This document shows, one piece after another, positions 3,020 to 40,472 of a stretch of 64,000 nucleotides of DNA; position 1 is the first letter of the stretch; each line of letters begins with the position of its first letter. The stretch is from the NCBI RefSeq assembly GCF_016808095.1, contig NC_068971.1, positions 3,038,001 to 3,102,000 of the forward strand, read 5' to 3'. The DNA comes from Vigna angularis. Its lineage: Eukaryota > Streptophyta > Magnoliopsida > Fabales > Fabaceae. Both the position numbers and the translations under genes were made by a program. The notes under the pieces are model-generated. The model worked only from the letters and a program-made list of their open reading frames with translations, made no database searches and was not told the DNA's origin.

Positions 3020-3073
<54 letters not shown>

Positions 3074-3303
3074 GTTTGATAATTTACGTAACATTTTCTC
3101 AATTTTATTTGATAAAAAAATTCTTATGCATGACAAAAGACATATTTTAAACAAAAGAATATTTGAATAATATTTTCTTTTTTCTATTTTTTTATTTTAA
3201 ATTAAAAATAAAAGTTATTAAAATACTCTTCTATTTAAAGTATTTTTTTATGAATAAAAATATTTTATATCTAACTAAAATTTAATATCAGGTTACAAAA
3301 GTT

Positions 3304-3391
<88 letters not shown>

Positions 3392-6433: not shown

Positions 6434-6513
<80 letters not shown>

Positions 6514-9587: not shown

Positions 9588-10689
9588 CGGAAAATATGTT
9601 CTTGATTACATCATATCGTGTATCGAAACTGGGAGTGAATTTGAATAGTGTTCGAAGCTCATCGTCCCTTTGGATCCTTAATGTTATTATCTCCGTCGCT
9701 TGCTGTGGTGCTCTTACTATAATCTGTATCATGTTGGCTACACACATCACTGTCCGACACCTCCTCACCAATACCGCTATACTGAAGTTGCAGAACAAAC
9801 TGGAGCATCCCAACCACGTCTTTCATGGAGGGCCTTTCAGTCCCATCCTCATGCAAGCAGCTCAGCAATCTTACCAAATTTATGAAAACACTGAGCTGCT
9901 GTCTGGCCCTTCAACGAGGGATCCACAATTTCACATAGACATCCCTTCTCATAGCAATGCTTCGCCCATTTAACAACTGATACCCGTTGCTTCTCCTCCC
10001 AGTGAACCAAAGGTTGTCTCCCACACAATAACTCCAAGAGCACTACCCCAAACGAGTACTCCGGGTCTAAGTATCCTATGCTGCCTTTCACCTGAGTGTT
10101 CACATGGGACATCGAAAGACCTGTGGGTCCAATTCTGGATAAACCTAAGTCTGAAACCTTGGCCACCCATTTTTCATCCAACAAGATATCGGTGCTCTTC
10201 ACGTCACGGTGAATGATCGACTGCTTCACACCTGTATGCAGATAATGCAATCCTCTTGCAACACCTATGCATATTTTGACCCTTTGCTCCCAAGGAAGGG
10301 AGGGGTTATCGGAGTCGTAGAGATGGACACGGAGGGTTCCACGACCCATGAAATCGTAAACGAGTATCATCTCGTTGCTCTCGTAGCAGTAACCGATGAG
10401 GGAAACAAGATGGAGATGACGTAGTTGAGAAAGCATTTCGATCTCGTTCACGAACTCGTTAATACCTTGCGGAGAACCTCGTTTGAGCCTTTTCACTGCG
10501 ACGCGTGTTGAACCGTCGTAGATGTAGCCTTTGTACACGTTGCCGAAGCCTCCCACGCCAACGACTAAGAGTTCATCGAAGTTGTTGGTTGCTGCTATGA
10601 TTTCCGCGATTGAGAAGTGGCGGCAGAGGTGGGTGGGTAGCCACGATAAGTCACTGCCAAGAGAAGTTCCGAATTTTTCATTGGGACAC

Positions 10690-10954
10690 TGTTGGGTATC
10701 AGTCATACGACACAAGCACACACAACAAAGAATAAAGATGAGAAAATTTAGACTAGGCAAATAACTGGAAATTTTATACTAAGAGGAGAAATTACAACAC
10801 TCTTAAGAATTCTTCAATTGCTTAAAAGCAAGAGAACTAGAGAAGGAAGAGAAGAGAATGGGATGAGGAAAGGGAAACCTTAACCTCTCTTTTATAACCA
10901 AAGGAGGAAGTCCCTTACAATGTTTTACTAGATGTGGGACTTCTCTCCTTCACA
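10690..10954 (-). repeat. 3' LTR of the copia element
   Basis: 265 bp, bounded by TG...CA. The minus strand carries a TATA-like TATAAAAGAGAGG near 10896. It matches 15243-15507 throughout on reading. Confidence 0.95.
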
Positions 10955-14000: not shown

Positions 14001-14920
14001 TAAGTGTGAAACCAGTCTCGATGTGGAGTCATGTGCCACGTTGCTCCTGAATCCATTATCCATCTATCATGAAATTTCTTTTCACCATTAGAACTGATTG
14101 CTGCTTCGCTCACCAGGATTTCTCCATCTTCTTCGACATTTGCAACACAACCTTGTGAGGTTGAAGCTTCATTTTTCCTCTTCCAGCACTCTTTCTTTGT
14201 GTGCCCTTTCTTGCCACAATAGTAGCATTTGTATTTGAAACTCTTCTTACTTTGTGAGCTTGACCTTTCATTACTTTTACTCCCACTGGAGCCACGTTCC
14301 ATTGACCTTCCTCTTGTCATCATCAATGCTTCTGCTTGTTTAGTGGTTTCCGCTCTATCTACTTTGTTTTTCCGCCTGGATTCTTCTTCAAGAATAGTTC
14401 CGGCAACATCCTCAAAGTATAGGCGCCCTTCAATATTATTGTTAGTAACGTTGATGATGAGTTGGTCATACGAGTCTGGTAAGCTTTGAAGTAGAAGTTC
14501 TGCACGCTCATTTTCAACTATGTTGAAATTTGCGGCTGATAGTTGGGCGAACAAGGTGTTGAGGTGGTTGATATGATCCGTCACCGAAGTAGACTCACTC
14601 ATTCGAAGTGTGTAAAGTTTTCTTTTCAAAAATATCCTTGTGTGAAGAGACTTGACCTCATATAATTTTATGAGGACATCCCAAATCTCCTTTGCTGTAT
14701 TTTTCTCCGCCACGCTAGATAATACTGAGTCTGCCATTGCTAGGTGCAAATTTGCGATAGTGTTGTTGTCAATTTCTTTCCACTTCTGATCCGTCATTTC
14801 TGCGGGTTTTTCTTCAATTGCATCTATGCAATTGTCTTTTCTCAGAATTGCCTTCATCTTCAATTTCCATAACGAGAAATTGTTCCCGTTAAACTTCTCT
14901 ATCTCATATTTTGTCGTCAT
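11021..14920 (-). CDS. Copia gag-pol polyprotein
   Basis: A 1299-aa frame from the ATG at 14920 (MTTKYEIEKFN); the nine codons before it begin with GTG and are probably leader. Order from the N-terminus: gag, with a CCHC zinc knuckle CYYCGKKGHTKKEC (about 232-245); aspartic protease WIMDSGATWHMT (about 287-298); integrase HHCC (HRRLGH to CEHC, about 423-457) and catalytic core (CLRTDNGGEY, then NGVAERMNRTLLE); reverse transcriptase with YVDDMLVVG; RNase H ending with STTEAEYMAATQACKEAIW. The order PR-INT-RT-RH defines Ty1/copia. No stop or frameshift is present, so the element may be autonomous. The partial element at 62827 encodes a close relative. Confidence 0.97.
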   Translation of the reverse strand: MTTKYEIEKFNGNNFSLWKLKMKAILRKDNCIDAIEEKPAEMTDQKWKEIDNNTIANLHLAMADSVLSSVAEKNTAKEIWDVLIKLYEVKSLHTRIFLKRKLYTLRMSESTSVTDHINHLNTLFAQLSAANFNIVENERAELLLQSLPDSYDQLIINVTNNNIEGRLYFEDVAGTILEEESRRKNKVDRAETTKQAEALMMTRGRSMERGSSGSKSNERSSSQSKKSFKYKCYYCGKKGHTKKECWKRKNEASTSQGCVANVEEDGEILVSEAAISSNGEKKFHDRWIMDSGATWHMTPHRDWFHTYEPISGGSVFMGNDHALEIAGIGTIKIKMYDGTVRTIQGVRHVKDLKKNLLSIGQLDDLGCKIHIEERILKAVRGNLVVMKAEKITANLYVLMGDTVQEANATVASTSEEEAILMWHRRLGHMSERGLQILAERNLIPGLKKVDSPFCEHCVTSKQHRLKFARTTTKSKHILDLIHSDVWESPELSLGGEKYFVSFIDDYSRRLWVYPIKKKSDVFAQFKEFKAQVELETGKRIKCLRTDNGGEYVDGDFQDFCKKEGIVRQFSVPHTPQQNGVAERMNRTLLERTRAMLQTAGVAKSFWAEAVKTACYLINRSPSTAIKLKTPMEMWNGKAANYSSLRIFGCPVYVMYNTQERTKLDPKSRKCIFLGYADNVKGYRLWDPTAHKVIVSRDVVFVENELQSKQTNDSEKKDKVTVQIEKKPSESSSDSKEEQEEHEPNEVGDGELRRTTRERVKPSWHSQYVMTSHDAYCLLSEEGEPSIFQEAVTSSDASLWMAAMQEEIEALHRNKTWNLVELPKGRKAIGCKWVYKIKKDGNDQVERYRARLVVKGYAQKEGIDFNEIFSPVVRLTTIRIVLAMCAAFDLHLEQLDVKTAFLHGELEEEIYMLQPEGFEKQENLVCKLNKSLYGLKQAPRCWYRRFDSFIISLGYNRLSSDHCTYYNRFTENDFIILLLYVDDMLVVGPNKALIQELKAQLAREFDMKDLGPANKILGMQIHRDRKNRKIWLSQKNYLLKILRRFNMQDCKPISTPLPINCKLSSSMRPSSEAERMEMSRVPYASAVGSLMYAMICTRPDIAQAVGVVSRFMGNSSGEHWNTVKRILRYIKGTSNVALCYKGSESIVRGYVDSDFAGDLDKRKSTTGYVFTIAGGAISWLSKLQDVVALSTTEAEYMAATQACKEAIWIKRIMEELGHKQQQIVVYCDSQSALHIAKNPAFHSRTKHIGIRYHFVREVVEEGSVDMQKIHTDENLADVMTKPVNTDKFRKTRSCYGLLET

Positions 14921-15229
14921 TTTTTTTTTCAGAACCGGCTTATGCACTTCTCACTATGAATAGTATTGTCTACTGGAACTACACAGGTAGACCGTAAAGT
15001 AAAGCCTAAGAAGTTCCCAGGAAAGAGAGGTAGGTCACAACGGACACTCTTAAGTACCAAGTCTTTCCTTAGCCAGAACTTTCCCAGACAACACTTTCAC
15101 ACTACCAGACATTTCCAGTAATAACTCTTTTCTGATGCGGAAGATCGGATTAAACCGCAACCACAGAGCATACTCAGAATTTTTACCAACACTATTCTAA
15201 TGACAATAGCAGCGGAATACAACCCTATA

Positions 15230-18702: not shown

Positions 18703-21258
18703 TCATCGTCCCTTTGGATCCTTAATCTCTGAGAAAACATCGTCAGGGATTAACACAGAAGATTCCTTGCTCCCCCTGCTGCTATTATCTCCGTCGTTTG
18801 CTGTGGTGCTCTTACTATAATCTGCATCATGTTGACTACACAAACCACTGTCCGACACCTCCTCACCAACACCACTATAGTGAAGTTGCAGAACAAGCTG
18901 GAGCATCCCAACCACGTCTTTCATGGAGGGTCTTTCAGTACCATCCTCATGCAAGCAGCTCAGAGCAATCTCACCAAATTTGTGAAAACACTGAGCTGCT
19001 GTCTGGCCCTTCAATGAGGGATCCACAATATCACACAGACATCCCTTCTCATAGCAATGCTTCGCCCATTTAACAACTGATATCCGTTGCTTCTCCTCCC
19101 AGTGAACCAAAGGTTGTCTCCCACACAATACCTCCAAGAGCACTACCCCAAACGAGTACACGTCAGATTTCTCCGTCAAACGCTGCCTTTTGTAGTACTC
19201 AGGGTCTAAGTATCCTATGCTACCTTTTACCTGAGTGTTCACGTGGGACATCGAAATACCTGTAGGCCCAATTCTGGATAAACCAAAGTCTGAAACCTTG
19301 GCCACCCATTTTTCATCCAACAAGATATTTGTGCTCTTCACGTCACGGTGAATGATCACCTGCTTCACACATGTATGCAGATAATGCAATCCTCTTGCAA
19401 CACCTATGCATATTTCTACTCTTTGCTCCCACGGCAGGGACGGGTTATCGGAGTCGTAGAGATGGTCACGGAGGGTTCCACGACCCATGAAATCGTAAAC
19501 AAGTATCATCTCGTTGCTCTCGTAGCAGTAACCGATGAGGGAAACAAGATGGAGATGACGTAGTTGAGAAAGCATTTCGATCTCGTTCACGAACTCGTTA
19601 ATACCTTGCTGAGAACCTTGTTTGAGCCTTTTCACTGCGACGCATGTTGAACCGTCGTCGATGTAGCCTTTGTACACGTTGCCGAAGCCTCCCACGCCGA
19701 CGACTAAGAGCTCATCGAAGTTGTTGGTTGCTGCTCTGATTTCTGCGATTGTGAAGTGACGGCAGAGGTGGGTTGGTAGCGATGATGAGCCACTTCCCAG
19801 AGAAGTTCTGTCTTTTTTAATGTGACCCTTGCTGAAAGAGACGTTCTTCCTGCGCTTGATTAGGATGAAAACGATGATAAGGGAGAGCAAAACGACACCG
19901 GAAACTGCACCTGCAACGGCGGCAGGGGTTCTCGTAGTGCTGTTGTTTTTATTTTTTGATATTTGAACGGTCTGGAATGGAGGCGGGGCTGAGCTAGGTT
20001 CAGCGAGGTTACCTGTTGGGTCGCTGATTTTGAAGAGTTCAATTGCGTTTAGTTGTGCGTCCTTGATCATGCTTTTATCGTGAGGGTGTAATTTCACAGA
20101 AAGATTTGCCTTTTTCTGATTATCTCGAATGATGACTACGTAGTCTCTAACCACTGGTACACCCTTCTGTTTATCGCCCCAATTGAAAATGTCTACCATG
20201 TCTTCAACCAAATGATCCTGAATGAAGATGAGGAAGATCTGGTCACCAGACCCAATAACCATCGGGTTAAGCTGGCAAAAGTGTAACCGTAGCACGTAGG
20301 TGAAACCAGGATCAACAGGAAGCTGCCATGTGAGGTTGAACCCCATGTTCACAAGTTCGTTTTGTCCCATACTCGCTAATGAACGGTATACCTGGTCTGG
20401 TGCAGTGTAATTAGGAGTCTTACTAAAGTTCAGCTTGGCTGTATTGTCAATATCAAGAGATTCTACACCTGGATTAGTTATATATTCATTATGGACATCC
20501 CACGTTCTGAGCATACCCGTATCCTCTGCGGCGGGGATATTTCGGTCCCCCAGTCTTAGCCGGTACTTTGTTTCCAGAGCCAAAATGGTTTCAATTGGAT
20601 ATGTTCCTCCTCCAACAAGTTTCGGCAATCCATGGATGTCGACGTTAGGATCGGTGTAGTAGAGATAAGAGGGCATTGAAACAATCTCGATTCCATTGAT
20701 GAAAGCGTAGGAACCTGTGGAGCTTGGAATGAAGGTTATGTTGAGGTTTTGTCCTTCTCGGAGATTGATGCAATACTCTCTGAATAGGATGTTGGAGTGA
20801 GCAGGGTCATTAACAGAATCCGCATCGAGGGAAGCATTGAAACGTTGAAGGAGAGTGTATGGGCCTGCTTTGACCGAGAAAACGGCTTTGGAGCGATTAA
20901 AGTTGTTGTGGTATGAAGTTGAGAAGAAGAAGAGGCGAAGGAACATTGGGCCAGCGGTGAGATTGAAGATTGAGTAAGTGAAATTAGAGAAGGAGAGGCG
21001 AGCAGAGGCGTAAGGACCCAGTATGGTTGATTCTGTGAGAGCAGTAGCAAGAACTGAGCCCCGACTTATAGAGAGAAGCTTTGTGTTGGTGTCTCCAATC
21101 CAGTTCCGACCGTCGGGCGTGGAGAAGTTGGTGGAAGAGCCACAGTTGATGGTGAGAAGGTCAGGGGGATCAAAAATAACATCTGCTTTGGAAAGATGAA
21201 AGAAACTCAATAGGAGAAGGATGGTTCCCAAAGCTATTGGTTTGGTAGTTGTTTCCAT
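18703..21258 (-). CDS. CrRLK1L (FERONIA-like) malectin-domain receptor kinase, intact
   Basis: 851 aa without an intron, usual for the family. Signal peptide about 1-25, ending SKADVIF. Malectin-like ectodomain about 27-410, with GPYASARLSFSNFTY, AFINGIEIVSMP and PNYTAPDQVYRS. Transmembrane segment about 446-467, followed by KRRKN. Kinase about 510-780: GVGGFG loop 521-526, VAVKRL lysine 543, HRDVKSTN 638-645, DFG 657-659, DPEYYKRQRLTEKSDVYSFG 685-704. C-tail ends FSEIKDPKGR. All catalytic residues are present, so an active Ser/Thr kinase is expected at the plasma membrane. Relatives sense RALF peptides and cell-wall state; which one this copy binds cannot be read from sequence. It is the intact sister of the decayed copy upstream and diverges from the receptor at 53743. 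Confidence 0.96.
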   Translation of the reverse strand: METTTKPIALGTILLLLSFFHLSKADVIFDPPDLLTINCGSSTNFSTPDGRNWIGDTNTKLLSISRGSVLATALTESTILGPYASARLSFSNFTYSIFNLTAGPMFLRLFFFSTSYHNNFNRSKAVFSVKAGPYTLLQRFNASLDADSVNDPAHSNILFREYCINLREGQNLNITFIPSSTGSYAFINGIEIVSMPSYLYYTDPNVDIHGLPKLVGGGTYPIETILALETKYRLRLGDRNIPAAEDTGMLRTWDVHNEYITNPGVESLDIDNTAKLNFSKTPNYTAPDQVYRSLASMGQNELVNMGFNLTWQLPVDPGFTYVLRLHFCQLNPMVIGSGDQIFLIFIQDHLVEDMVDIFNWGDKQKGVPVVRDYVVIIRDNQKKANLSVKLHPHDKSMIKDAQLNAIELFKISDPTGNLAEPSSAPPPFQTVQISKNKNNSTTRTPAAVAGAVSGVVLLSLIIVFILIKRRKNVSFSKGHIKKDRTSLGSGSSSLPTHLCRHFTIAEIRAATNNFDELLVVGVGGFGNVYKGYIDDGSTCVAVKRLKQGSQQGINEFVNEIEMLSQLRHLHLVSLIGYCYESNEMILVYDFMGRGTLRDHLYDSDNPSLPWEQRVEICIGVARGLHYLHTCVKQVIIHRDVKSTNILLDEKWVAKVSDFGLSRIGPTGISMSHVNTQVKGSIGYLDPEYYKRQRLTEKSDVYSFGVVLLEVLCGRQPLVHWEEKQRISVVKWAKHCYEKGCLCDIVDPSLKGQTAAQCFHKFGEIALSCLHEDGTERPSMKDVVGMLQLVLQLHYSGVGEEVSDSGLCSQHDADYSKSTTANDGDNSSRGSKESSVLIPDDVFSEIKDPKGR

Positions 21259-25748: not shown

Positions 25749-28067
25749 TGTCAATACCCAATTTCGTCCGGGTAAATATAATTCATCACAAAAATAAATA
25801 AATAAAAAACATAAAAAAAACCAAAATGAAAAATACTATTTATTTTACTTTTTGCACCCCCAAATTTTCTTTTAAACACTTAATCCAATGGCCCAAAATA
25901 ATCTCTTACTTTTTTACTTCCTCATCACCTCTTTTCTCTTATTACACCCCACTCTCCACATCACCATCCACATCACCCTCCACATCTCATTCCACATCAT
26001 CTACCTTTTCCATTTACTTTTTCCACATCATTTCCATATTAATTTTATATATCAACTTTTCTAATTATTCCACTTACATTTTTTAATTATATCTTCTCCA
26101 TCAACATTTTTTATTATTCATTTTTCTCCACCTTATTTTTCCACCCACTTTTTATATTATTTCTTTCACTTATTTTCCACATTAACTTTTACTATTCACT
26201 ATATTTTATTTCACCTAATTTCTCCACCAACTTTTTATATTATTTCTTCCACTTAATTTCCACACCTAATTTCTCCACCAACTTTTTATATTATTTCTTT
26301 CACTTATTTTCCACATTAACTTTTACTATTTACTATATTTTATTTCACCTAATTTCTCCACCAACTTTTTATATTATTTCTTCCACTTAATTTCCACACC
26401 TAATTTCTCCACCAACTTTTTATATTATTTCTTTCACTTATTTTCCACATTAACTTTTACTATTCACTATATTTTATTTCACCTAATTTTTCCACAAACT
26501 TTTTATATTATTTCTTTCACTTATTTTCCACATTAACTTTTTCTATTCATCTTTTTTTTATTATATTTTATTTCATCTAAATTTTCCACCAACTTATTTT
26601 ATTATTTTTATTCATCAACTTTCTTCATCCTTTACTCTATAAATACCTACATTCTCTTCACTTCACACACAAAAAAAAAATTACATAATACTCATCTCTT
26701 CTCTCTCAAAACCTCTTCATTCCATCCCAAAACTCTACTTCATTTTTCTCTCACATTTTACTATTTCCTAATCCCTCTATACATAGTAAATCCCATACCA
26801 CATTTCTACTATAAATTCATCTTCTTCGCCATCAACCTATCTCTCCTTACAACTTATTACAAGCAAAGTTTTGCTTCATCTTTCAAATCTTCAACGAGGT
26901 ACACATTTTCTTTTCATTCTATTTATATGCATTTTGATCATTTTTTTTAATTTATCCAATTTTCTACCACAATTTTATCTTATGTTTTTTTTCTTTCACA
27001 ATTTTATGTCATAGACATTTTAACTCGTCTCTCTTCTTAATAAAAAGAAAACTAAAATATAAAAATTAAAGATAAAAAGAAAAATACAAAATAAAAAAAA
27101 TTAAAAATTACAAAAATATGTTTTAAAGGTTGAGGCACATGTGTGATCGCACGCATCGTCCTTGTGCTAAAAACCTTTTCTCTTTCTTCAAAATCCCAAA
27201 AATATGTTTTAAAGGTTTAGGCACATGTGTGATCGCACGCATCGTCCTTGTGCTAAAAACCTTTTCTCCTTCTTCAAAAAATTCCAAAAAAAATACGTTT
27301 CAAAGGTTTCGGCACATGTGTGATCGCACGCATCGTCCTTGTGCTAAAAACCTTTTCTCTTTCTTCAAAAATTACAAAAAAATATGTTTTAAAGGTTTAG
27401 GCACATGTGTGATCGCACGCATCGTCCTTGTGCCAAAAACCTTTTCATTCTCCTAAATAAAAAATACCAAAAAAAATATAAAATCTTCAAAAACTAAAAA
27501 ACATCTATTTTTCAAACTTCAAACAATATCGCCTAGCTAGAACTACGTGATCCTTGATTCTCCATCAAAAGTGGAGATACGTAGGAGCAAGGCCAGTCCT
27601 TGTCAGGTTCACTCTCCCAAAAATCCAAAATCATTTCCAAACAATTCTCAAACAAATTTTCAAGCAATCTCCAAAACGAACTACGGAACCCTGATTTCTC
27701 ATTCTGAATGAGAATACGTAGGAGCAAGGTCAATCCTTGTCGGACCCAAAAACCTAAAAAATATTGTTTGTTTCTTTCGAGTTTTATTTCAAGGGAAAGT
27801 TAAACATTTTGAAAACCACATTCATATTCGCATATTTAATTAAAGGTACTGCCTTAAGGCAGGCGTTGTAGGGTGCTAATACCTTCCCTACACGTAATCG
27901 ACTCCCGAACCAAGAATCTGGTTCTAATAGACCATGCCTTATCATTTTATGGTTTTTCCGTAGTTTTCCAGAATAAACTATGGTGGCGACTCCAAATCTC
28001 TTTTTTCAAAAACCCGTTTTCTTTTTACGGATCGTCGTCCCGTCGTGATTTTTTTTCGGTTGCGACA
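25749..28067 (+). repeat. 5' LTR of the 14.7-kb element
   Basis: 2319 bp. U3 contains tandem copies of TTATATTATTTCTTTCACTT and TCCACATTAACTTTTACTAT segments (26120-26560). A TATA box CTATAAATAC lies at 26637-26646, and four units of about 85 bp with GGCACATGTGTGATCGCACG lie at 27128-27450. Two AATACGTAGGAGCAAGG-like units follow (27540-27745). Confidence 0.95.
26637..26646 (+). promoter_or_regulatory. TATA box of the 5' LTR
   Basis: CTATAAATAC, about 890 bp into the LTR and followed by C/A-rich sequence typical of a plant transcription start. The 3' LTR copy is at 39042-39051. Confidence 0.65.
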
Positions 28068-30828
28068 GATGGCGACTCCACTGGGGAAAATGAAAGAGAG
28101 TCAGGCCATTTAATTAGATAAGCGAATTCGATGTGGTTTTCCTTTGTGTATTTATTCCCTTTGTCTTTATCTATGTTTAATATTTGGAATAATTGCATGT
28201 GAGTTTCTTTTACTTTTTATTTATGTTTGAAATAATTGTTTCTACTTATCTGTGTTTATTTTTGCAATTGTTGTTTTACAGTATAATCTCCCTTCACACA
28301 CTTTATGCATATCATGAGTGGGGCCCTATACCCGGGTCTGAGCGCAACTTAGAAATAGAGGAGTTGTGTAGCGGTGTCACTCTGGGATGTACTTCCCGTC
28401 TGGCTATCGTGAGAATTCCAGCTAGAGTCTGTTCTCTTCATTTGTGTCTCCACATCTAGTTGATTACTCTGACTGTTGTGGAGAGACAGTGGAAAGAGCC
28501 ATAGCTCTGGTGACCTTGATTTAAGAATTAGGAAACCATCCTGGTGAGTGCATGTATGTGGTCTTAGAACTTTAAGTACCATCCTTCGATTAAGACACGA
28601 AAGGGAGATCGTTTTGTCATTTCTTTTTCATCTTTTCTTTGTATACATCAAATAAATGTACCATAATAAAAAATGTAAAAAAATAAAAATAAAAAAAAAT
28701 TAAAAAATTAGAACAATAAAAATGTACATGTTCTGATTCATATGTATTTTGTTTTGCATTTATCTTGTTATCGAGTTCATGGAATAATTCTCAAGAAAAT
28801 AAAAATAAAATTGTCAAATAAAAAAAAATGCTTTTGAGGCAAAACAAAGATTTTTTGGTCCAATCGTTCAATTTAATTTTATCATTGATTTGAAATGTTC
28901 ATCCAGCTTTCATGATATGAAAATGTTCAAGATCATCGTTTGACCACTGATCCATCGCCCATTTTCGTTCGTAAGAGAGGAATCATCAGATAAGGGGCTT
29001 TATTCGTAAATGATCGCAAGCAATTCTCACCAAAGTAAATAAAAAATAAAAATAGGGGCAATATTTTGTAAATTTTTCTTGTAATTTAAGATGTTTAGAA
29101 ATAAAACAACCACGATTTATGTTTATGTGCGAACTTGTTTTGTAAAATTGTATCGTCTTTTGGTACTAATTTTATTAAAAAATGAAAAAAAATGTTCCAG
29201 TTTTGTTAAAATAATTTGTGAAAATTAGTCGCGTCTGAATTTTGTTTTTTTTTCATTAAACCATCTGGAAAATAAATGATGATAATTTGAAATGATTGAA
29301 AATATATTCCTTTGCTACTAGAAATTACTTTGAACAAGGAGATTATTATGATTTTTGCATCTAATTTATGTAATAAAAAGAAAAATTTGCAAAGAAAATG
29401 TTTTTGGAAAATATTTAGAAAATGAAGCATATTTAGATGAAATTTTGTCAACAAATTTTAAAGTAATTCAATCCATTTTTAGTTATTTCAAAAATTCAAT
29501 AAAGTTTGCACACATTATAGATTGGTTGTTTGTTCTCTAAATTTTTTAACTCATGAGAAAATGTTTAAATGTGTAATAAGTTGCCCTGATGAAAAATAAA
29601 AAAATGTGTTAATAGATTTGCTTGCGGGCCATTTTTGGATTGTTTTCTCAATGATCATCACTTTTCAAGAGTCCATCAAATTTATAGTTTGTTCACCGTG
29701 TCAGGGGCATTTTTCTCAGTTTGTACCCCATATTTCTTTGTCATCCGATGTACTTGTCATACTGGTTCCCTTTCTTCATGTTTTAGGTGCAGAAACGTTT
29801 TTTATCGTAAACCTTGTTTATCCTGTTGAAGCCCAAATCGTAATCCACTGCCAGTCTTAATCTCCCTGTCTTAACCTAAACCTTGTCATGTTAGGCCCAT
29901 CATCTGTGCCTAAGCCTAAACATTGTCCAAATCGTTTTTGTTATCGTGTCCGTGTTCTAATCCAGCCATGTCAAGCCTGATTTTTGTTTTTAAACCTCTG
30001 TCTGTCTAAGCCTATTTTGGCCCTCATTAACATGTGTTATTCATTTTCATGGTCGTTAAGTGTCAATCTGATTTTCCATTTACATCCATTCAAGTTGTGT
30101 TAAATTTGTGTAGGGGCATATTTCCGCGTCTGTCTTAATGTGAGTTCATATTGGTCAATTTTTAGTCTCTGGGCGCATAAGCTTTTCCAGATTAGGGGCA
30201 AATTCGTGTTCATGTCTGTTTATCAAAAAAAAAAATGTTGAAGCATTTTTAAAATCTTGAACAATTTTATACATGATTATTCAGATTTTTTTTCAAATTC
30301 AATGATAAATTAATTGTTTTCTTTCGGACCAAGTAAAAAAAAAAAAGGACAATTTTGAGAGGAGTTCCACGAACCCAGATTGCATAATATGTGTAAATTA
30401 ATTTGTGTATATTTTTGAACATGTACGTAAAACAAAAAATATACATTTAATTTTGCATTACTACAAATAAAGGCCTTCAGGTGGCCGAAACATAAAAACC
30501 AAATTACAAAAAATAAATAATTAAGAAAGAAAATTACAAAAAAAAAATAATGTTTGCAGATCTATGGAGTTCTTGTCTTCTGCCGGTATTCTCGAGTTTT
30601 GTAAGATGAAAGTCTGCACAAAACTTGTTAGATCTCAAACAACTAAAACAAAAAAAAAACACATAATAATAAAGGAAACATTAAACGGAATTCGTCCAAG
30701 TTCGACCACTGACCGTAAAAAACAAAGAAAGAAAATAGAAAAAACAAAGGCAAATAAAGGATGTTCAGAGTTCGATCAATGCTGATCGTTAATATTACAG
30801 ACCATGAAAAAATAAATAAATAAAAAAT
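28068..30828. other. 5' internal region of the 14.7-kb element, non-coding
   Basis: Begins with the primer-binding site at 28070-28087. Frames are short and broken, and I see no zinc knuckle, protease, RT or integrase motif. In an autonomous relative gag-pol would lie here; it has been replaced or lost. Confidence 0.6.
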
Positions 30829-32300
30829 TCAACGAAAAAATTCCCGAGCTGGTTGTGGTGGTCTAAGGGAGAGCTCCGTCGAAGGAGCTCTGGTTCGGAA
30901 GGTGAGAAGCATGGGTGGAGCGATTTGTCGTTCGTCTCTGTCGTCGTCGATGATGATCGGAACGGGGAACAGGTCCAGCAGCCTCGGCGCCCTCATAATC
31001 ACCCAATCGTACTCTTTCAAAAAAAAAAAAAAAAAAACTTTGTGTCAATAATAGAGACGGAAGAGTAAAATTCAAAAATAGAGGTGATCAGGTTTCTTAC
31101 CATACATGTATAGCGGCAGTTGTGAAAAGTGAGTGCCAGTGGGGTCTATCTCCGCTTGCCAGCGCCTGACCCGATTGCCATGGTTGTTGAACCAGCAGTG
31201 CACGTTATATTCGCTGGCATCTCCGAAAGCCCTTAGTCGAGACGTAATCTCGACGACTTGGGCTCTGCTGGGATGTGTGACCCCGTAATTATAGATGTTG
31301 GTCATCATCTTGATCTGATCGTCAGTAGGACGCCACCGCGGACTGGTGTATCTCTCTATTTCCATCTCACTCATCCTTCCTCTCAGTATTCTAAAAAAAT
31401 AAAAAATGAAAATAAAAGGAACAAAAACATAACAAAAGCATAACAAATTTTTTTAGTTTCTTTGTTCGGTGTTTTATTTATTTTCGTTTCCTTTTAAGTT
31501 TATTTTATCCGGTCAGTCTTTATTATTTCAGTGTCTGGTCTCGGATCTGTTTCACGGTCCTTGCAAAAAGGGTCCTAAATGGATCTATGTCCATATTGTC
31601 CATGTCTGGTTCATACAAATAAAATTCTCTTTTTAAGTTTTCTGTTTTTATGGGGTACGTGGCGTTGTTCTACCCGATTGTCTCTGCCATACCTTCAATC
31701 GAAGGGAGATTAACGTCTGGTTTCCAGCCTATATACCCCTTAGTTTAAGACAGTGTGTTCTTGTTTTAAGTTAAGAAAGAAAAATAGAAGGTGAAGAGGA
31801 AAGCGAATAAAAGCAAAAAATAAAGAAGCGAGCAGGAAATAAGGAAAAGAAAGCGAAAAGTAAAAAAAGTAAAGTGCATGAACGTAAAGAGCGAGAAGAA
31901 TAAAAGACAATGAAAAGTGCGAGTAAGGAGGTGAAGATGTAAAATTAAAGCATAACGAAAAGAGAAAGCGGAAAAGAAAAACAGAAAGGGAAGAGGGAAA
32001 GAAAGGCAGAGAAAGCTGAAAGGGGAGGAAGAAAGGAAAAAGCATGAAGGAAAGAAAGAAGGAAAAAGGACTTACCCGGAAGAAGAAGGGCTTGCTTACA
32101 GAAGCTCGCCGGAAGACTCAGACGCCTTCGAAGGCACGCAGGTACAGAGCCTCTTCGTAGATTCCAGACGCTCAAGGAAGAGAGAGAAGAGAGAAAGGGA
32201 GAGCAAGAGAGAGAGTGGTCAGACTGAAATGTCGGCCTACGCAAAGGAGCGCTCGATTTGTAGCCAAATTTTCCACTGTAGCCACAGTTTCGGTCGTTGC
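30829..32300 (-). CDS. WOX-like (WUSCHEL-type) homeobox gene in antisense inside the LTR retrotransposon
   Basis: Coding exons are 31374-31101 and 31013-30829, predicting 152 aa; a 5' leader exon, with its start unknown, probably ends at 32076. Residues 11-73 form a WUS-type homeodomain: RWRPTDDQIKMM helix 1, then SRAQVVEITSRLRAFG helix 2, then NVHCWFNNHGNRVRRW helix 3. Asn64 equals the invariant homeodomain Asn51; WFNN and GNR replace the usual WFQN and KAR. Joining at donor G|GTAAGAAA (31101/31100) and acceptor GAAAG|AGTACG (31014/31013), behind a T-rich tract, keeps the frame. It adds LLDLFPV (103-109), like the WUS box, an acidic DDDRDE run and STELSL (136-141), EAR-like. WOX proteins are nuclear transcription regulators. 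Without splicing, translation stops nine codons on. Expression cannot be judged from sequence. Confidence 0.7.
31014..31100 (-). other. Predicted 87-nt intron of the WOX-like gene
   Basis: Donor GTAAGAAACC at 31100-31091. The acceptor is at 31015-31014, behind about 17 consecutive T on the minus strand. Its length is normal for plants, and the splice joins two open frames in phase 1. Confidence 0.7.
31391..32075 (-). other. Predicted 5'-leader intron of the WOX-like gene
   Basis: The minus strand reads TTCCGG|GTAAGTCC at 32076/32075 and TTTTTTTAG|AATACTGAG at 31391/31390, just upstream of the ATG at 31374. The 685-nt interior is strongly pyrimidine-rich on this strand, the pattern seen in plant leader introns that raise expression. 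Confidence 0.55.
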
Positions 32301-32409
32301 CACCGTCTGATGCCACAGTCCCGGTCTTTCTGAAATCAAAAAAAAAAAAAAAAAATTGAAAATCTGAAAACGGATAAGGGTTTTGTTGGGTCAATCCGGC
32401 CCAATACAA

Positions 32410-34060
32410 GACTTCTTAGATGATCCGATTTCACCAAAAAATAATAAAACAAAATATAAAAAATGTGATAAATAGAAAAATTTCAAAAATAATAAATGGA
32501 GTGATGTAAAATTTGAAGTGTTCAAAATTGTTTTTCATTTGCATGATAAAGGACATTTTTCAGGTTCATTGGGCCTCATTGTCAGGTTAACCTTCTTTGA
32601 ACCCAATTCTTCTGAAGTATAAATTTGAGTGAAGAATTATTTTGGCATATTTGTAATTTCACATCACACCATTTTGTTTGATTTTATTCCTTCTTCTTCT
32701 ACAAATCTAAAAAAAAAATATTGAAAAAAAGGAACAGTGCTCGAGCCCATTAGGCCCAATGGCCTTCGTGGTTTTCTCTCGAGTCTACTTCTTTTGAAAA
32801 TATGTCAAAAATATTTTGTTTTCACATTTTTGCTGTTAAATGATGTATCATTCTGAGATTTGTCAAAAAAAAAATTCAAGTTAGATTTCAATTTTTTTAG
32901 TGTGATAGTAGGAATAGTTATCGTCGAGCCCATCTGGGCCCATTTTCAGTGTAATATTTTCCTTAGTTTTGTTTTCTCAAAAAAAAAAAAATAATAATAA
33001 AATAAAAAATATTTCCCTCATCATGTTTCATAATTTTCACATAATGTCAAACTTCTCTTTAAAACAAAAAAATAAAATTATTTTCAATTCCTTGTGTCGC
33101 ACTTACATTTGGGTCCGTCCGGCCCGTTAAGCTGAGACTGCCTCGCATTTGGTTTGATTTTTCTTCAGGTCCGAGCTTGACCTAGTTTTCTTTGTAGTCT
33201 TGTAAAATAAAAGTCAATCCAAAAATCTCAAAAAAAAAATATCAAAGTGCAAATTTTCAACAATGTCTTTAGAGTACAATCTTCCAAGATTGTAATGTGT
33301 GATTTTCTTTGAATTTGTAGTTAAAAAAAAAATCTGAGAATGAAAGATGAACAGTTTTTGAGCCCATTAGGCCCCTTTGTCATATGTGGTTTCTCTTGAA
33401 CCAGTGCATCTGAATTTCTGAAAAATAAAAAATACATGTTTATGTAGATTTTGTGTTTTCAATTCATAATTTCCCTTTCCATTTGTGTGAACAAGTATTT
33501 GTGCAAAAAAATAAAAATAGAGGAATTCACACCCTTGTCATGGTTGTAAAAAGAATAGTGTTGGGCCCATTGAGTCTAGTAGTGTTGCAAAATTTTCTTT
33601 AGTTCAATCTTGTGAAATCCTCTCAAAAAAAATGAAATTTTTTTTTCTTTTAGCTTGTTCCATATACTATAAAAATGTTTTCTTTGTCATCTTCTTGTGT
33701 CAAGTTCAACGGCTCAGGTCATCTGATACATTGGGTCAATGTGCCTGGTAAGTCCAACTTCCTTCTATGTTACTTCTCCTCAGGTCCGATCCGATCTGGA
33801 TTTTCCCGTGTCGGAAAGTAAAAAAAAAAGATCGGTTCGGAGCCCATTGAGTCCAATTGTCCTTCTCTGTCAAAAAAAAAATACAAAAAGATTTCTTTCC
33901 GTAAATTGCATAATTTTCCTTCAGTAATATATTTGTCAAATAAAAAAAAACAGCATAAGTGTGAAAGATACAAATTGTTAACAATGTGTTTTAGTACAGT
34001 CTTCCAAATTATCAGCATGATTTTCTTGGAATTTGTTGTCAAAAAAAAAAATAAGAATTA
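32410..34060. other. Internal region upstream of the WOX-like gene with scattered GCCCA/TGGGC motifs
   Basis: Non-coding. It repeats a loose theme of GAGCCCATTAGGCCC or TTGGGCCCATTGAG followed by TTTTCTCTTGA and A-runs (32565, 32745, 32925, 33360, 33565, 33840), about one every 200-250 bp. For the antisense gene this is the promoter side. Confidence 0.55.
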
Positions 34061-34062
34061 AA

Positions 34063-34690
34063 AAAGCCCAGTTCCTACATTGGCCCAGAAAAGCCCATTT
34101 CCTATACTGGCTTGCAAAGCCCAGTTTCTATGCTGGTTCGCAAGGCCCAGGTTCCACATTGGCCGAAAAATCTCAGATTTCACATTGGCCCAGAAAAGCC
34201 CATTTCCTATACTGGCTTGCAAAGCCCAGTTTCTATGCTGGTTCCCAAGGCCCAGTTTCCACATTGGCCGAAAAATCTCAGATTTCACATTGGCCCAGAA
34301 AAGCCCATTTCCCATACTGGCTTGCAAAGCCCAGCTTCCATGCTGACCCGCAAGGCCCAGTTTCCACAAAGGCCAAAAATCTCAATTTCTACAATAGCTC
34401 AAAGCCCATTTCCCATACTGGCTTGCAAAGCCCAGCTTCCATGCTGACCCGCAAGGCCCAGTTTCCATAAAGGCCAAAAATCTCAATTTCCACAATAGCT
34501 CTCAAAACCTATTTCCCATACTGGCCTGCAAAGCTCAGTTCCTATGCTGACCCGCAAGGCCCAGTTTCTGTTGGCTAAGAAATCCCAATTTCCCCAATGG
34601 CTCACAAAGCCTATTTTTCATATCGACCTGCGAATTCCAGTTTCCAGGCTGGTCCGCAAAGCCCAATTTTCAAAACAAAAAACAAAAAAA
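34063..34690. repeat. Tandem repeat, unit about 119 bp, rich in GGCCCA
   Basis: Five to six units of TGGCCCAGAAAAGCCCATTT, CTATACTGGCTTGCAAAGCC, then GGTTCGCAAGGCCCAGTTTC and CACATTGGCCGAAAAATCTC. The last copies are diverged and shortened. Frames over it in both strands are repeat artefacts. Confidence 0.9.
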
Positions 34691-37090
34691 CAAAAAACAA
34701 AAATTTTTTTGTTTTTCAACTAGTATCATCATTTTCATTTCATATTACTTTTCTTCATGCATAAAAAAAAATACGCAAAAGTTGAGTCAATTGTTTTCGA
34801 TGCAAATCGTCCATTTTATGAGATTTCAAATAAAATGTAATGGATGTCATAATCTCCTGTAGTCAAATGTTTAAATCACATATTCTTAAGAGATATCTGT
34901 GTGTGCATTGCTTGAAAACATCATCCTTCAGCCCTCGCTATACCTAGAGATTGGCCCCATCATGTTGTTGAGCCCAAATAATAAACACAAAGTTTTACAC
35001 TGGGGCAGATTTTCCATTACCTCCACTGGCTTTCATTTGGGAGATTCCTAAATCTGTTAGGACAAAACAAAAACAAGGAAAAAATGAATAAATAAAAAAA
35101 ATGAATGACTCTTGTTGAGATCATTTAGTCTTGTCTCCTAATTAATCTTTTGAAAATAAATCAATCAAAATTTGAAATGATGTGTGGCCATTTTTCTTCA
35201 TCCAAAAAACAAAAATATATCCTTTGATACCAAATTCGAGCCAAAAAGAAATTTCTTTTCAAATTTTACCCAAACAAGGGTTACCATCATAGTAGAAGTC
35301 AACTCAAATTGCAAAGGAGCACACTTAGTGATCAAATGAAGAGAATTCCTCAAAAGTGAAGCAAAAACGGAAAGAATCACAAAGTGATGACAAACAAAGA
35401 GTGAAATTTGCAAATTAGCAAAGAAAGTCAACAGTGTTGACGAATAACTGATACAAGGTGCAGATGGTAACTCTTGTTTCAAATAACCCACAAAAATTTA
35501 TTTGAGCCTTTATATCATTTCTTTCAACACCCTTTAGCCCCGCCACATTACAAGCCCAATAAAAGTCCACACAGATTGAATAATGGTTGCTTAATTTTTC
35601 ATGAAGCTTAATTTTCAGACAAGACATAAATGACTAACGATGCAGTTGTAAAAAAAATGATGAAAAATAAATGTCCTCGGATGAAGGGAACTCCCTATTG
35701 ATCAAAATTATATGAAGGAAAATCAAGCCAATTGGGGCAATCCTTTCAAGCCAATCCTTTCCATATCTATCACAAATTCATATCCCGTTCAAATTCTTTC
35801 CCCGATTCCCAAACTAAGGGGCAACATTGTAAGTGTTACATACGCCCATTCTTCAAAACTAAGGCAATTTTGTGAGTTTCATGTGTTTTTGGCCCATTCA
35901 AAATATGGGGCAACTTTGTGCATCCCTTGTTGGGCCTCCCATGATTTTGGTTCGCCCCGAACTTAAAAAATCCATCATCACCAAAATTGGGGCAATTTGT
36001 AAATCTCACATGATATTCTCACTCCCTGATTCATGACTTATTCCCTCACAATTCCCAGATACATTTGTCCATACCTATCTTTTTACCATGCTCCAAACTG
36101 GAGCAGCAACTGAGTATCTACAACCTCATATTGGCATTTATAACTGCTTTAAGGAGTAAGAGGCCCAAGTAGCCAACCCATTACTCTCCAAATGCTTTCA
36201 CACATTTGTCCCAACCCTTGATATCAGGCATGCATACACTGATGTTTCAAAAGAAAATGTTGAACGCACAAGTTTGAACATTTGACTTTAGAATTTGACA
36301 TCCAAAAAAAAATGATGAAAGTCTAAATCTTCATAGACCAGATGATTTCAAAGAAAAACAACTTGACTCAGTAAAAAGTGTCATAGTTTCATAATCTTCC
36401 ATCACGGATCAAGAGTCAACATCATGTACACATTTTCATGAATTTTCATCAAATCTTCTTCTTTCAAAAAGACAAAAAAAAATCAAATTGCATCAAAGTT
36501 TTCTCCTCCAATTTCAAAATTACATATTTTCATCAAATCTTCTTCCTTCAGAAAAGACAAAAAAAAAATCAAAAAAATCAAAATGCATCAAAGTTTTCTC
36601 CTCAAATTTCAAAATTTACACCAACCATATTTCTCTCATATATCAAGATTTCAAATCCTTGTACAAAACTGCAACACTTTGTTTATTGATTTCAAAACTT
36701 TCAAAAAAAAATCATCAAAGTCAACATCATGTACATATTTTCATCAACTTTGAATTTGTTTTCGTGAATATTCATCAAATCTTCTTCTTTCAAAAAGACA
36801 AAAAAAAATCAACATGCATCAGAGCTTTCTCCTGTAATTTCCAAATTTACATCAATCATGTTTCTCATTTCAAAAAAAAAAAAATATATATGGACACTCA
36901 TTTCTATCTCAAGAAATAAAAAATCAAAAAAAAATCAATCAAAATCAAAATCAAAAAAATCAAAATAAAAAAAAATTCAACATCTCAAAATTTCAACAAA
37001 ATCCAAATTTCAAATTCAAAACAATCAAAAAATTGTTACTTTCTGTCATTGGTGTCTCGGCCCTCTGCAAGGCAATGGTCGAGCCCAGCA
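34691..37090. other. 3' internal region of the 14.7-kb element, non-coding
   Basis: No gene. It includes three partial direct repeats of TTTTCATCAAATCTTCTTCT with TCAAAAAGACAAAAAAAA and CATCAAAGTTTTCTCCT (36430-36850). Confidence 0.6.
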
Positions 37091-37099
37091 ATCAAACTC

Positions 37100-37990
37100 A
37101 AATCATTCACTCATCCATAGGGTTGGTACACCCTTCGCGAGGTTTGTACACCTCATTCACTATCCATAGGGTTGGTACACCCTCCATGAGGTTTGTACAC
37201 CTCATTCACTTTCTATAGGGTTTGTACACCCTCCATGAGGTTTGTACACCTCATTCACTTCCATAGGGTTGGTACACCCTCCACGAGGTTTCTACACCTC
37301 ATCAACTTCATCCATAGGGTTGGTACACCCTCCACGAGGTTATTACACCTCATTCACTTCCATAGGGTTGGTACACCCTTCGCGAGGTTTGTACACCTCA
37401 TTTACTATCCATAGGGTTGGTACACCCTCCATGAGGTTTGTACACCTCATTCACTTTCTATAGGGTTTGTACACCCTCCATGAGGTTTGTACACCTCATT
37501 CACTTCCATAGGGTTGGTACACCCTCCACGAGGTTTTTACACCTCATCAACTTCATCCATAGGGTTGGTACACCCTCCACGAGGTTATTACACCTCATTC
37601 ACTTCCACAGGGTTGGTACACCCTCCACGAGGTTTCTACACCTCATCAACTTCATCCATAGGGTTGGTACACCCTCCACGAGGTTATTACACCTCATTCA
37701 CTTCCATAGGGTTGGTACACCCTCCACGAGGTTTCTACACCTCATCAACTTCATCCATAGGGTTGGTACACCCTCCACGAGGTTATTACACCTCATTCAC
37801 TTCCATAGGGTTGGTACACCCTCCACGAGGTTTCTACACCTCATCAACTTCATTGTCCATAGGGTTATTACACCCTCCACGAGGTTTGTACACCTCATTC
37901 ACTTATCCATAGGGTTATTACACCTTCCACGAGGTTGTTACACCTCATTTCACTTCATCCATAGGGTTGTTACACCCTCCGCAATGTCTA
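37100..37990. repeat. Minisatellite, about 18 units of 48-51 bp
   Basis: Unit: CATAGGGTTGGTACACCCTC, CACGAGGTTTCTACACCTCA, then a short spacer. Two unit types (spacers TTCACTTC and TCAACTTCATC) alternate in the middle, giving a higher-order period near 99 bp. Because units are multiples of three, two long frames stay open across it. Tat-lineage retrotransposons are known for tandem repeats just before the 3' LTR. Confidence 0.95.
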
Positions 37991-38153
37991 CGCACCTCAA
38001 TTCTCTCAATCTTGTTCATTTTGTTTAAATTTCCCTATTGTTTCTCGTTCATTTTGAAATACGGACGAAATTAATATTTCTATCTTTACTTATTGTTTAC
38101 TCTGATAATATGTTTTCATATTATCTAGTAAAATCTAAGTAAATAGGGGCAGC

Positions 38154-40472
38154 TGTCAATACCCAATTTCGTCCGGGTAAATATAATTCATCACAAAAAT
38201 AAATAAATAAAAAACATAAAAAAAACCAAAATGAAAAATACTATTTATTTTACTTTTTGCACCCCCAAATTTTCTTTTAAACACTTAATCCAATGGCCCA
38301 AAATAATCTCTTACTTTTTTACTTCCTCATCACCTCTTTTCTCTTATTACACCCCACTCTCCACATCACCATCCACATCACCCTCCACATCTCATTCCAC
38401 ATCATCTACCTTTTCCATTTACTTTTTCCACATCATTTCCATATTAATTTTATATATCAACTTTTCTAATTATTCCACTTACATTTTTTAATTATATCTT
38501 CTCCATCAACATTTTTTATTATTCATTTTTCTCCACCTTATTTTTCCACCCACTTTTTATATTATTTCTTTCACTTATTTTCCACATTAACTTTTACTAT
38601 TCACTATATTTTATTTCACCTAATTTCTCCACCAACTTTTTATATTATTTCTTCCACTTAATTTCCACACCTAATTTCTCCACCAACTTTTTATATTATT
38701 TCTTTCACTTATTTTCCACATTAACTTTTACTATTTACTATATTTTATTTCACCTAATTTCTCCACCAACTTTTTATATTATTTCTTCCACTTAATTTCC
38801 ACACCTAATTTCTCCACCAACTTTTTATATTATTTCTTTCACTTATTTTCCACATTAACTTTTACTATTCACTATATTTTATTTCACCTAATTTTTCCAC
38901 AAACTTTTTATATTATTTCTTTCACTTATTTTCCACATTAACTTTTTCTATTCATCTTTTTTTTATTATATTTTATTTCATCTAAATTTTCCACCAACTT
39001 ATTTTATTATTTTTATTCATCAACTTTCTTCATCCTTTACTCTATAAATACCTACATTCTCTTCACTTCACACACAAAAAAAAAATTACATAATACTCAT
39101 CTCTTCTCTCTCAAAACCTCTTCATTCCATCCCAAAACTCTACTTCATTTTTCTCTCACATTTTACTATTTCCTAATCCCTCTATACATAGTAAATCCCA
39201 TACCACATTTCTACTATAAATTCATCTTCTTCGCCATCAACCTATCTCTCCTTACAACTTATTACAAGCAAAGTTTTGCTTCATCTTTCAAATCTTCAAC
39301 GAGGTACACATTTTCTTTTCATTCTATTTATATGCATTTTGATCATTTTTTTTAATTTATCCAATTTTCTACCACAATTTTATCTTATGTTTTTTTTCTT
39401 TCACAATTTTATGTCATAGACATTTTAACTCGTCTCTCTTCTTAATAAAAAGAAAACTAAAATATAAAAATTAAAGATAAAAAGAAAAATACAAAATAAA
39501 AAAAATTAAAAATTACAAAAATATGTTTTAAAGGTTGAGGCACATGTGTGATCGCACGCATCGTCCTTGTGCTAAAAACCTTTTCTCTTTCTTCAAAATC
39601 CCAAAAATATGTTTTAAAGGTTTAGGCACATGTGTGATCGCACGCATCGTCCTTGTGCTAAAAACCTTTTCTCCTTCTTCAAAAAATTCCAAAAAAAATA
39701 CGTTTCAAAGGTTTAGGCACATGTGTGATCGCACGCATCGTCCTTGTGCTAAAAACCTTTTCTCTTTCTTCAAAAATTACAAAAAAATATGTTTTAAAGG
39801 TTTAGGCACATGTGTGATCGCACGCATCGTCCTTGTGCCAAAAACCTTTTCATTCTCCTAAATAAAAAATACCAAAAAAAATATAAAATCTTCAAAAACT
39901 AAAAAACATCTATTTTTCAAACTTCAAACAATATCGCCTAGCTAGAACTACGTGATCCTTGATTCTCCATCAAAAGTGGAGATACGTAGGAGCAAGGCCA
40001 GTCCTTGTCAGGTTCACTCTCCCAAAAATCCAAAATCATTTCCAAACAATTCTCAAACAAATTTTCAAGCAATCTCCAAAACGAACTACGGAACCCTGAT
40101 TTCTCATTCTGAATGAGAATACGTAGGAGCAAGGTCAATCCTTGTCGGACCCAAAAACCTAAAAAATATTGTTTGTTTCTTTCGAGTTTTATTTCAAGGG
40201 AAAGTTAAACATTTTGAAAACCACATTCATATTCGCATATTTAATTAAAGGTACTGCCTTAAGGCAGGCGTTGTAGGGTGCTAATACCTTCCCTACACGT
40301 AATCGACTCCCGAACCAAGAATTTGGTTCTAATAGACCATGCCTTATCATTTTATGGTTTTTCCGTAGTTTTCCAGAATAAACTATGGTGGCGACTCCAA
40401 ATCTCTTTTTTCAAAAACCCGTTTTCTTTTTACGGATCGTCGTCCCGTCGTGATTTTTTTTCGGTTGCGACA
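38154..40472 (+). repeat. 3' LTR of the 14.7-kb element
   Basis: Same length and layout as 25749-28067, with two substitutions seen. Ends GGTTGCGACA, followed by the CTCTC target duplication. Confidence 0.95.

What the first reader, a model, noticed from the sequence alone, without database searches (positions are those of the whole stretch)
30829..32300. A compact WUSCHEL-type homeobox gene lives in antisense inside an LTR retrotransposon
Within a 14.7-kb LTR element that has lost gag-pol, the minus strand encodes a WUS-type homeodomain (RWRPTDDQIK, SRLRAFG, CWFNNH). The homeodomain frame is undamaged and intron signals surround it. Host gene fragments in LTR elements are usually sense-strand and broken. 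Here the gene looks complete and selectable. Antisense accessory genes near the 3' end are known from Tat-lineage elements such as Grande, but to my knowledge not a WOX-type regulator. An element that ships a stem-cell-type transcription regulator could influence the cells in which it moves (inference).
Basis: partly seen in the sequence, partly recalled or inferred. Interest (0 to 1): 0.92.

Follow-up and report, generated by a model that had tools for sequence, protein, structure and literature searches.

The report
Retrotransposon carrying antisense WUSCHEL-type regulator gene
A large, recently active family of jumping elements in adzuki bean carries, on the opposite strand, a small intact gene for a plant stem-cell-type DNA-binding regulator, and natural selection has kept that gene working while the DNA around it decayed.

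Summary
Confirmed and extended. The window holds a 14,724-bp LTR element (2,319-bp LTRs with 2 differences, TSD CTCTC). Its minus strand encodes a two-exon, 152-aa protein with a WUSCHEL-type homeodomain, a WUS-box-like LLDLFP and an EAR-like TELSLRPP. The host is Vigna angularis. This is no lone capture: its genome gave 656 first-look candidates, and all 150 scored were matches. In 50 copies read, exon 2 is 274 nt in 50, exon 3 stays in frame in 50, GT..AG is kept in 49, premature stops occur in 7. Silent divergence is close to intron divergence, but pN/pS is 0.18 (0.13-0.24); exon 3, absent from the query, gives 0.20. One copy sits antisense behind integrase in an Ogre-type element with near-identical LTRs, ORF1, gag-protease and RT-RH-aRH; others adjoin gag, or neither, as in the window. 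Fifteen element-type homeodomains group apart from 19 host WOX domains. Selection is shown; transcription, DNA binding and effect on element or host are inferred. Best reading: an element-borne accessory transcription regulator. My paper searches listed no WOX accessory gene in a retrotransposon.

The parts
25749..40472 (+). Whole LTR retrotransposon (no gag/pol match found), TSD CTCTC
   Evidence: LTR boundaries and TSD; tblastn with gag-pro, RT-RH, INT and a second gag gives no window hit
25749..28067 (+). 5' LTR
38154..40472 (+). 3' LTR, 2 differences from the 5' LTR in 2,319 bp
28068..28087 (+). Primer-binding-site-like GATGGCGACTCCACTGGGGA directly after the 5' LTR
   Evidence: the same site with one mismatch lies after the 5' LTR of the gag-pol element, L049 7235
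30829..31374 (-). Antisense WOX-type gene: coding exon 31374-31101, intron 31100-31014, coding exon 31013-30829 with stop; 152 aa (called exon 2 and exon 3 here, since a 5' leader intron ending 31391 is possible)
   Evidence: exon lengths and splice sites in 50 copies
31162..31338 (-). WUSCHEL-type homeodomain (residues 13-71; WFNNHGNR in the recognition helix)
   Evidence: structure model and Foldseek
30958..30981 (-). WUS-box-like LLDLFPVP (TLDLFP in divergent relatives)
   Evidence: alignment A3
30856..30879 (-). EAR-like TELSLRPP (VELSLRLP in divergent relatives)
   Evidence: alignment A3
31645..31747 (-). Highly conserved non-coding block upstream of the gene with TATATA at 31735-31730; promoter-like (inferred)
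   Evidence: Mean identity to the window 0.92-1.00 per 20-nt bin in 29 copies; the 40 best of 472 genome candidates are 99-100% identical; found upstream of 9 of 12 divergent group C genes
30716..32425 (-). Gene with flanks, shared with the gag-pol element L033 and the gag-bearing L034 at 76-78% DNA identity; on the gene's 5' side the match ends only because the fetched stretches end, and goes on in L050
34063..37980 (+). Region with tandem arrays (34063-34568, 37103-37980) between the gene and the 3' LTR
   Evidence: related repeats in L050

Best explanation
A WOX homeobox gene entered an Ogre-lineage (Ty3/gypsy, Tat clade) LTR retrotransposon in Vigna and became a lasting antisense accessory gene between pol and the 3' LTR. 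It is a complete small gene: conserved upstream block with a TATA-like site, two coding exons, homeodomain, WUS-box-like and EAR-like motifs. It has been copied into at least 150 and probably several hundred loci and kept by purifying selection while the element was active, in copies beside integrase, copies beside gag, and elements with neither, as in the window. Most likely mechanism (inferred): the minus-strand transcript is spliced and translated into a nuclear DNA-binding protein, probably a repressor, which adjusts transcription of the element and/or host genes in cells where the element is expressed, as antisense accessory proteins of some retroviruses do. Shown: structure, copy number, orientation, splice conservation, selection. 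Inferred: expression, DNA binding, target and benefit.
For: Homeodomain by sequence and predicted fold. 58 protein clusters with 257 member sequences, each named as Vigna angularis. 150 of 150 scored, of 656 first-look candidates, match, on contigs C1 to C11. 50 copies (window, 29 best-scoring, 20 lower-ranked): exon 2 274 nt in 50, exon 3 185 nt in 47 and different by whole codons in 3, GT..AG in 49, introns 77-135 nt; premature stop in 7, and one more stops 5 codons early. pN/pS 0.169 (0.113-0.257) for 30 and 0.181 (0.130-0.244) for 50; exon 3, not in the search query, 0.130 and 0.196; shifted frames 1.73 and 1.24. Among 30 copies dS is 0.22 (corrected; raw 0.19), raw intron distance 0.22, flanks 0.21 and 0.25. 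The 27 pairs with pS < 0.03 have ratio 0.58, wider pairs 0.16-0.18, as expected if constraint acts while elements multiply and stops after insertion. Gag or integrase sequence lies within 1.5 kb in 10 of 30 loci, in the opposite orientation to the gene in 10 of 10. L033, with the separate pieces L049 and L050, has LTR sequences 99.7% alike over 3,917 columns (3' LTR cut by the end of the fetch), ORF1 with DUF7745 (E 4.7e-130), gag-protease, RT-RH-aRH, integrase and the antisense gene.
Against: No expression data could be consulted. Seven recalled WUS-type motifs are not enriched in the LTR over shuffles, so nothing supports direct binding to the LTR. The recognition helix has N at position 50 and G at 53 (recalled numbering) where WUS has Q and K, so the DNA target may differ or binding may be weak. 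The tail is predicted with low confidence (block means 44-59 from residue 71 on). A trans-acting protein should be dispensable in elements without gag or pol, yet they keep it; recombination among subfamilies (L015) could contribute. Copies were found by similarity to exon 2, which favours intact ones.
Confidence: 0.85

Rival explanations
1. The ORF is a passenger: a host WOX gene captured and copied along, without a function for the element.
For: Gene capture by LTR elements is known; 7 of 50 copies have premature stops; the window insertion is very young.
Against: pS among copies is 0.19-0.30 with pN/pS 0.17-0.19 and no frameshift in either exon of 50 copies; 15 element-type homeodomains fall outside 19 host ones (98/98), so capture is not recent.
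Confidence: 0.05
2. These are host WOX genes that expanded, and the elements merely landed around them or carried some along; selection is for the host.
For: The V. reflexo-pilosa genome paper lists WUSCHEL-related homeobox proteins among expanded gene families (PMC10357499, passage). Some database names read 'WUSCHEL-related homeobox'.
Against: The gene lies inside the window element between near-identical LTRs, is antisense to gag or integrase in 10 of 10 loci where these are near, and 9 of 29 copies tested match the window element on both sides of the gene (L003, L005, L007, L012, L013, L014, L015, L019, L024). Closest pairs show relaxed constraint.
Confidence: 0.06
3. The conserved thing is the antisense RNA or the DNA block, not the protein: antisense transcription makes double-stranded RNA that tunes the element.
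For: A 103-bp non-coding block is at least as conserved as the coding sequence; a review proposes dsRNA roles for antisense accessory transcription (PMC7264820, passage); the element-sense strand of the block folds better than shuffles (z -3.2; gene strand only -1.2).
Against: Constraint follows codon position (0.036, 0.034, 0.129) and frame, which an RNA role does not predict. Covariation in the block is slight (one pair G-C to A-T).
Confidence: 0.12

Closest known systems
Ogre lineage of Tat-clade Ty3/gypsy elements
   Same: ORF1 before gag, gag-protease and RT-RH-aRH-INT in separate frames, aRH between RH and INT, long LTRs, tandem repeats (clade features from passages of PMC6317226)
   Different: An antisense, spliced homeobox gene between pol and the 3' LTR; the passages I read name the plant mobile domain as the prominent eORF domain of Ogre
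Antisense accessory ORFs of Grande, RIRE2, Retand (TRP28)
   Same: Antisense, between pol and the 3' LTR, suspected DNA-binding or nuclear role (passages of PMC11963269 and PMC7264820; section 11 part 1 of PMC11963269)
   Different: Different domain (homeodomain, no TRP28 hit), short gene in two coding exons, Ogre-type host element
WUS-clade WOX proteins (WUSCHEL, STENOFOLIA)
   Same: WUS-type homeodomain; WUS-box-like and EAR-like motifs in that order (motif names recalled)
   Different: G instead of K at homeodomain position 53 in the 15 domains, N50 in the window group; a group of its own; at least 150 copies
Cellular genes or domains taken up by plant LTR elements (Bs1, passage of PMC7264820; m6A demethylase domain in orchid Ty3/gypsy elements, PMC9289625, search listing only; LOGL4-like and histone H3-like ORFs, recalled)
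   Same: Cellular gene or domain in an element, in some cases kept
   Different: Here antisense, with introns and its own upstream block, a developmental transcription regulator

Membership tests
Ogre clade (Ty3/gypsy, Tat) | aRH domain between RNase H and integrase | tested here: met
   RVT_3 after RT_RNaseH within L033:4178-6397, integrase in L033:6210-7508; tested in the gag-pol relative, since the window element has no pol
Ogre clade (Ty3/gypsy, Tat) | gag-protease and RT-RH-INT in two frames separated by a gap (274 bp on average in PMC6317226) | tested here: met
   Listed ORFs 312-3878 and 4178-6397 in L033; integrase is listed in a further overlapping frame, 6210-7508, and splicing of the gap was not tested
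Ogre clade (Ty3/gypsy, Tat) | ORF1 before gag with plant mobile domain or relative | tested here: met
   DUF7745 E 4.7e-130 in L049:7736-9967; PMD only 18 bits, below its cut-off of 34.9
Ogre clade (Ty3/gypsy, Tat) | Placement in an RT/INT tree with reference Ogre elements | not tested
   No reference set was fetched
Ogre clade (Ty3/gypsy, Tat) | PBS matching tRNA-Arg | not tested
   TGGCGACTCC taken as tRNA-Arg type from recall only
WUS-clade WOX | WUS-type homeodomain | tested here: met
WUS-clade WOX | WUS box TLxLFP | tested here: inconclusive
   Window LLDLFP (first T lacking); divergent group C has TLDLFP
WUS-clade WOX | EAR motif LxLxL | tested here: inconclusive
   Window ELSLRP; most of group C ELSLRL
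WUS-clade WOX | Homeodomain nested among WUS-clade genes | tested here: not met
   15 element-type domains lie on one side of a branch against 19 host domains, 98/98; only 65 columns, midpoint root
Retand-type antisense accessory ORF | TRP28 (PF04195) domain | tested here: not met
   Only PF00046 found at E up to 1

The most novel reading that the evidence does not exclude
An Ogre-lineage retrotransposon has permanently recruited a stem-cell-type developmental regulator, the plant counterpart of a retrovirus that carries a cellular growth regulator, and uses it to steer cell state or its own transcription in the meristem. The benefit is so tied to the copy that elements stripped of every other gene still keep it.
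Probability: 0.3. Interest if true: 0.95.

Novelty: new variant of a known kind. Interest (0 to 1): 0.82.

Why it matters
The roles of antisense accessory genes of plant LTR elements are described as unknown in the review passages I read (PMC7264820). Here one belongs to a protein family with solved DNA complexes for its relatives, so the question becomes directly testable. It shows selection on a developmental-type regulator carried by elements, including elements in which no gag or pol was found. It warns that WOX counts and 'expansions' in Vigna genomes may be inflated by element genes. A published survey used a threshold of 250 codons for extra ORFs (PMC6317226, passage), which would miss a 152-aa gene split over two exons, so similar genes may have been overlooked.

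Tried and rejected
Binding to the element's own LTR: seven recalled WUS-type motifs are not enriched in the 5' LTR against 300 shuffles. Known RNA family around the conserved block: none at E 0.1. Group C gene inside one LTR pair at L047/L048: rejected, because the right-hand repeat has its own CATAC flanks and reads as a solo LTR. A shared LTR-like stretch followed by TGGTATCAGAGC does recur beside the group C gene in two copies, L047 and L083; not resolved further. Reaching WOX proteins outside Vigna by protein search: searches returned proteins named from V. angularis, V. umbellata and V. radiata only; the word-based search does not show absence elsewhere. The 12-copy 'window-type' set (ratio 0.223) included L002 and L004, whose gene-3' flank does not match the window element; the window with eight copies matching on both sides gives 0.234 (0.109-0.438), and adding L006, L021 and L015 gives 0.168.

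Full report
WHAT IS THERE. The finding is real at the stated place. The LTRs are 25749-28067 and 38154-40472, 2,319 bp each with two differences, flanked by CTCTC. At recalled plant substitution rates (0.7-1.3e-8 per site per year) the insertion is some 30,000-60,000 years old. The minus strand gives a 152-aa product from two coding exons (31374-31101 and 31013-30829). It matches the homeodomain model above its cut-off and, among solved structures, WUSCHEL and STENOFOLIA best. An AlphaFold2 model is confident for most of the homeodomain (block means 81-94 for residues 11-60) and poor for the tail; its best Foldseek matches are the STENOFOLIA and WUS homeodomains on DNA. The tail has LLDLFPVP and TELSLRPP. 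In more distant relatives these read TLDLFPIP and VELSLRLP, that is, a WUS box and an EAR-like motif (motif names recalled).

NOT A LONE CAPTURE. A protein search returned 58 clusters, 257 member sequences by the listed counts, each named as Vigna angularis. In the window's own 448-Mb assembly all 150 scored candidates matched, of 656 found at first look; the tool calls such counts lower bounds. More distant relatives, about 30-55% identical, occur in V. angularis, V. radiata and V. umbellata and in many copies in this genome.

THE GENE IS KEPT BY SELECTION. I read the window, the 29 next-best-scoring copies and 20 lower-ranked ones picked down the list. Exon 2 is 274 nt in 50 of 50; exon 3 is 185 nt in 47 and differs by whole codons in 3; the intron varies from 77 to 135 nt, with GT..AG kept in 49. 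Premature stops occur in 5 of 30 and 2 of 20; one more copy stops five codons early. Among the 30, dS is 0.22 (corrected; raw 0.19), close to raw intron (0.22) and flank (0.21, 0.25) distances, while codon positions 1, 2 and 3 differ at 0.036, 0.034 and 0.129. pN/pS is 0.169 (codon bootstrap 0.113-0.257) for 30 and 0.181 (0.130-0.244) for 50; exon 3, which was not in the search query, gives 0.130 and 0.196. The lower-ranked 20 alone give 0.194, and 0.259 for exon 3. The same columns read in shifted frames give 1.73 and 1.24. The 27 pairs with pS below 0.03 have a ratio of 0.58, wider pairs 0.16-0.18: constraint while the lineage multiplies, drift after insertion. Limits: pairwise counts are not independent, and copies were found by similarity to exon 2.

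IT BELONGS TO AN OGRE-TYPE FAMILY. Locus L033 has gag-protease (with a G-patch domain), RT, RNase H, a second RNase H and integrase on one strand, and the homeobox gene behind them on the other. The separate neighbouring pieces L049 and L050 show LTR sequences 99.7% alike over 3,917 columns, and L049 an ORF1 with DUF7745. By the criteria in the passages I read of a plant LTR-element survey (PMC6317226) these are Ogre features; no RT tree was built. In the 30 top loci, with about 1.5 kb of flank, integrase adjoins the gene in four (L016, L020, L027, L029) and gag in six (L008, L009, L010, L017, L018, L023), always in the opposite orientation; in the other 20 neither was seen. That pol is missing was checked over 10 kb only in L034, the longer stretch of L008. 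The window element shares its 3' half and LTR parts with L050 and reads as a gag-pol-less derivative. The window and eight copies matching it on both sides of the gene still give pN/pS 0.234 (0.109-0.438). L015 also has window-type flanks but a gene that groups elsewhere, so genes are exchanged between subfamilies.

A CONSERVED UPSTREAM BLOCK. Window 31645-31747 is the best conserved non-coding stretch near the gene; the 40 best of 472 genome candidates are 99-100% identical. It was found upstream of 9 of 12 divergent group C genes, where the TATA-like site reads TATATAAG on the gene strand in 6 of 9. I read it as the gene's core promoter (inference). The element-sense strand also folds better than shuffles (z -3.2; gene strand -1.2), with little covariation, so an RNA role is open.

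ORIGIN. In a homeodomain tree, 15 element-type domains lie on one side of a branch from 19 host WOX domains, support 98/98. With 65 columns and a midpoint root the depth is uncertain. By score the nearest host domain is a WOX2-like one for the window and for groups C, D and E, but an intermediate-clade one for group B. With the WUS-box-like and EAR-like tails, the likeliest history is one capture of a WUS-clade gene followed by change at homeodomain position 53 (K to G in the 15 domains of the tree).

MECHANISM. Shown: a complete, selected gene with conserved splice sites, in antisense. Inferred: expression from its own promoter, nuclear DNA binding with altered specificity, probably repression. 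No support was found for WUS-type sites in the LTR. Retention in elements without gag or pol argues for a benefit close to the copy itself, or for frequent exchange with intact relatives.

WHAT IS KNOWN. Antisense ORFs between pol and the 3' LTR are known in Grande, RIRE2 and Retand, in Retand mostly with TRP28, without known function (PMC11963269: passages and section 11 part 1; PMC7264820: passages). Word searches of these two texts find no 'homeo', 'WUS' or 'WOX', and of PMC6317226 no 'homeo' or 'WUS'. Paper searches showed no title or abstract start that describes a WOX gene in a retrotransposon; one search listed 15 of 42 papers, most listed papers were not opened, and the library is open-access only. 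A V. reflexo-pilosa genome paper reports WUSCHEL-related homeobox proteins among expanded families (PMC10357499, passage), which element copies could explain (inference).

Noticed in passing
window 31645-31747: 103-bp non-coding block far more conserved than neutral sites, with a TATA-like site on the gene strand and a stable fold on the other strand.
   Followed up: partly
L033:312-3878: G-patch domain (E 3.2e-8) behind the protease in the gag-protease frame of an Ogre-type element.
   Followed up: no
L047 about 4560-7400 and L083 about 4036-6780: Group C WOX-like genes lie beside an LTR-like stretch followed by TGGTATCAGAGC, an initiator-Met-type primer site (recalled), unlike the window's site; perhaps a second element family carries such a gene.
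   Followed up: partly
L015: Window-type flanks with a gene from another subfamily: exchange between elements.
   Followed up: no
window 11021-14947: Uninterrupted 1308-aa polyprotein of Ty1/copia look (by eye) on the minus strand, between 268-bp identical repeats at 10687 and 15240.
   Followed up: no
window 18703-21258 and 53650-56313: Two long receptor-kinase ORFs of malectin type (851 and 887 aa, identified by eye), with a related shorter ORF at 9849-10760.
   Followed up: no
window 231-2308: Long inverted repeat, outer arms 98% complementary, typical of a hairpin-forming transposon.
   Followed up: no
PMC10357499: WUSCHEL-related homeobox family reported as expanded in V. reflexo-pilosa; may be element copies.
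   Followed up: partly
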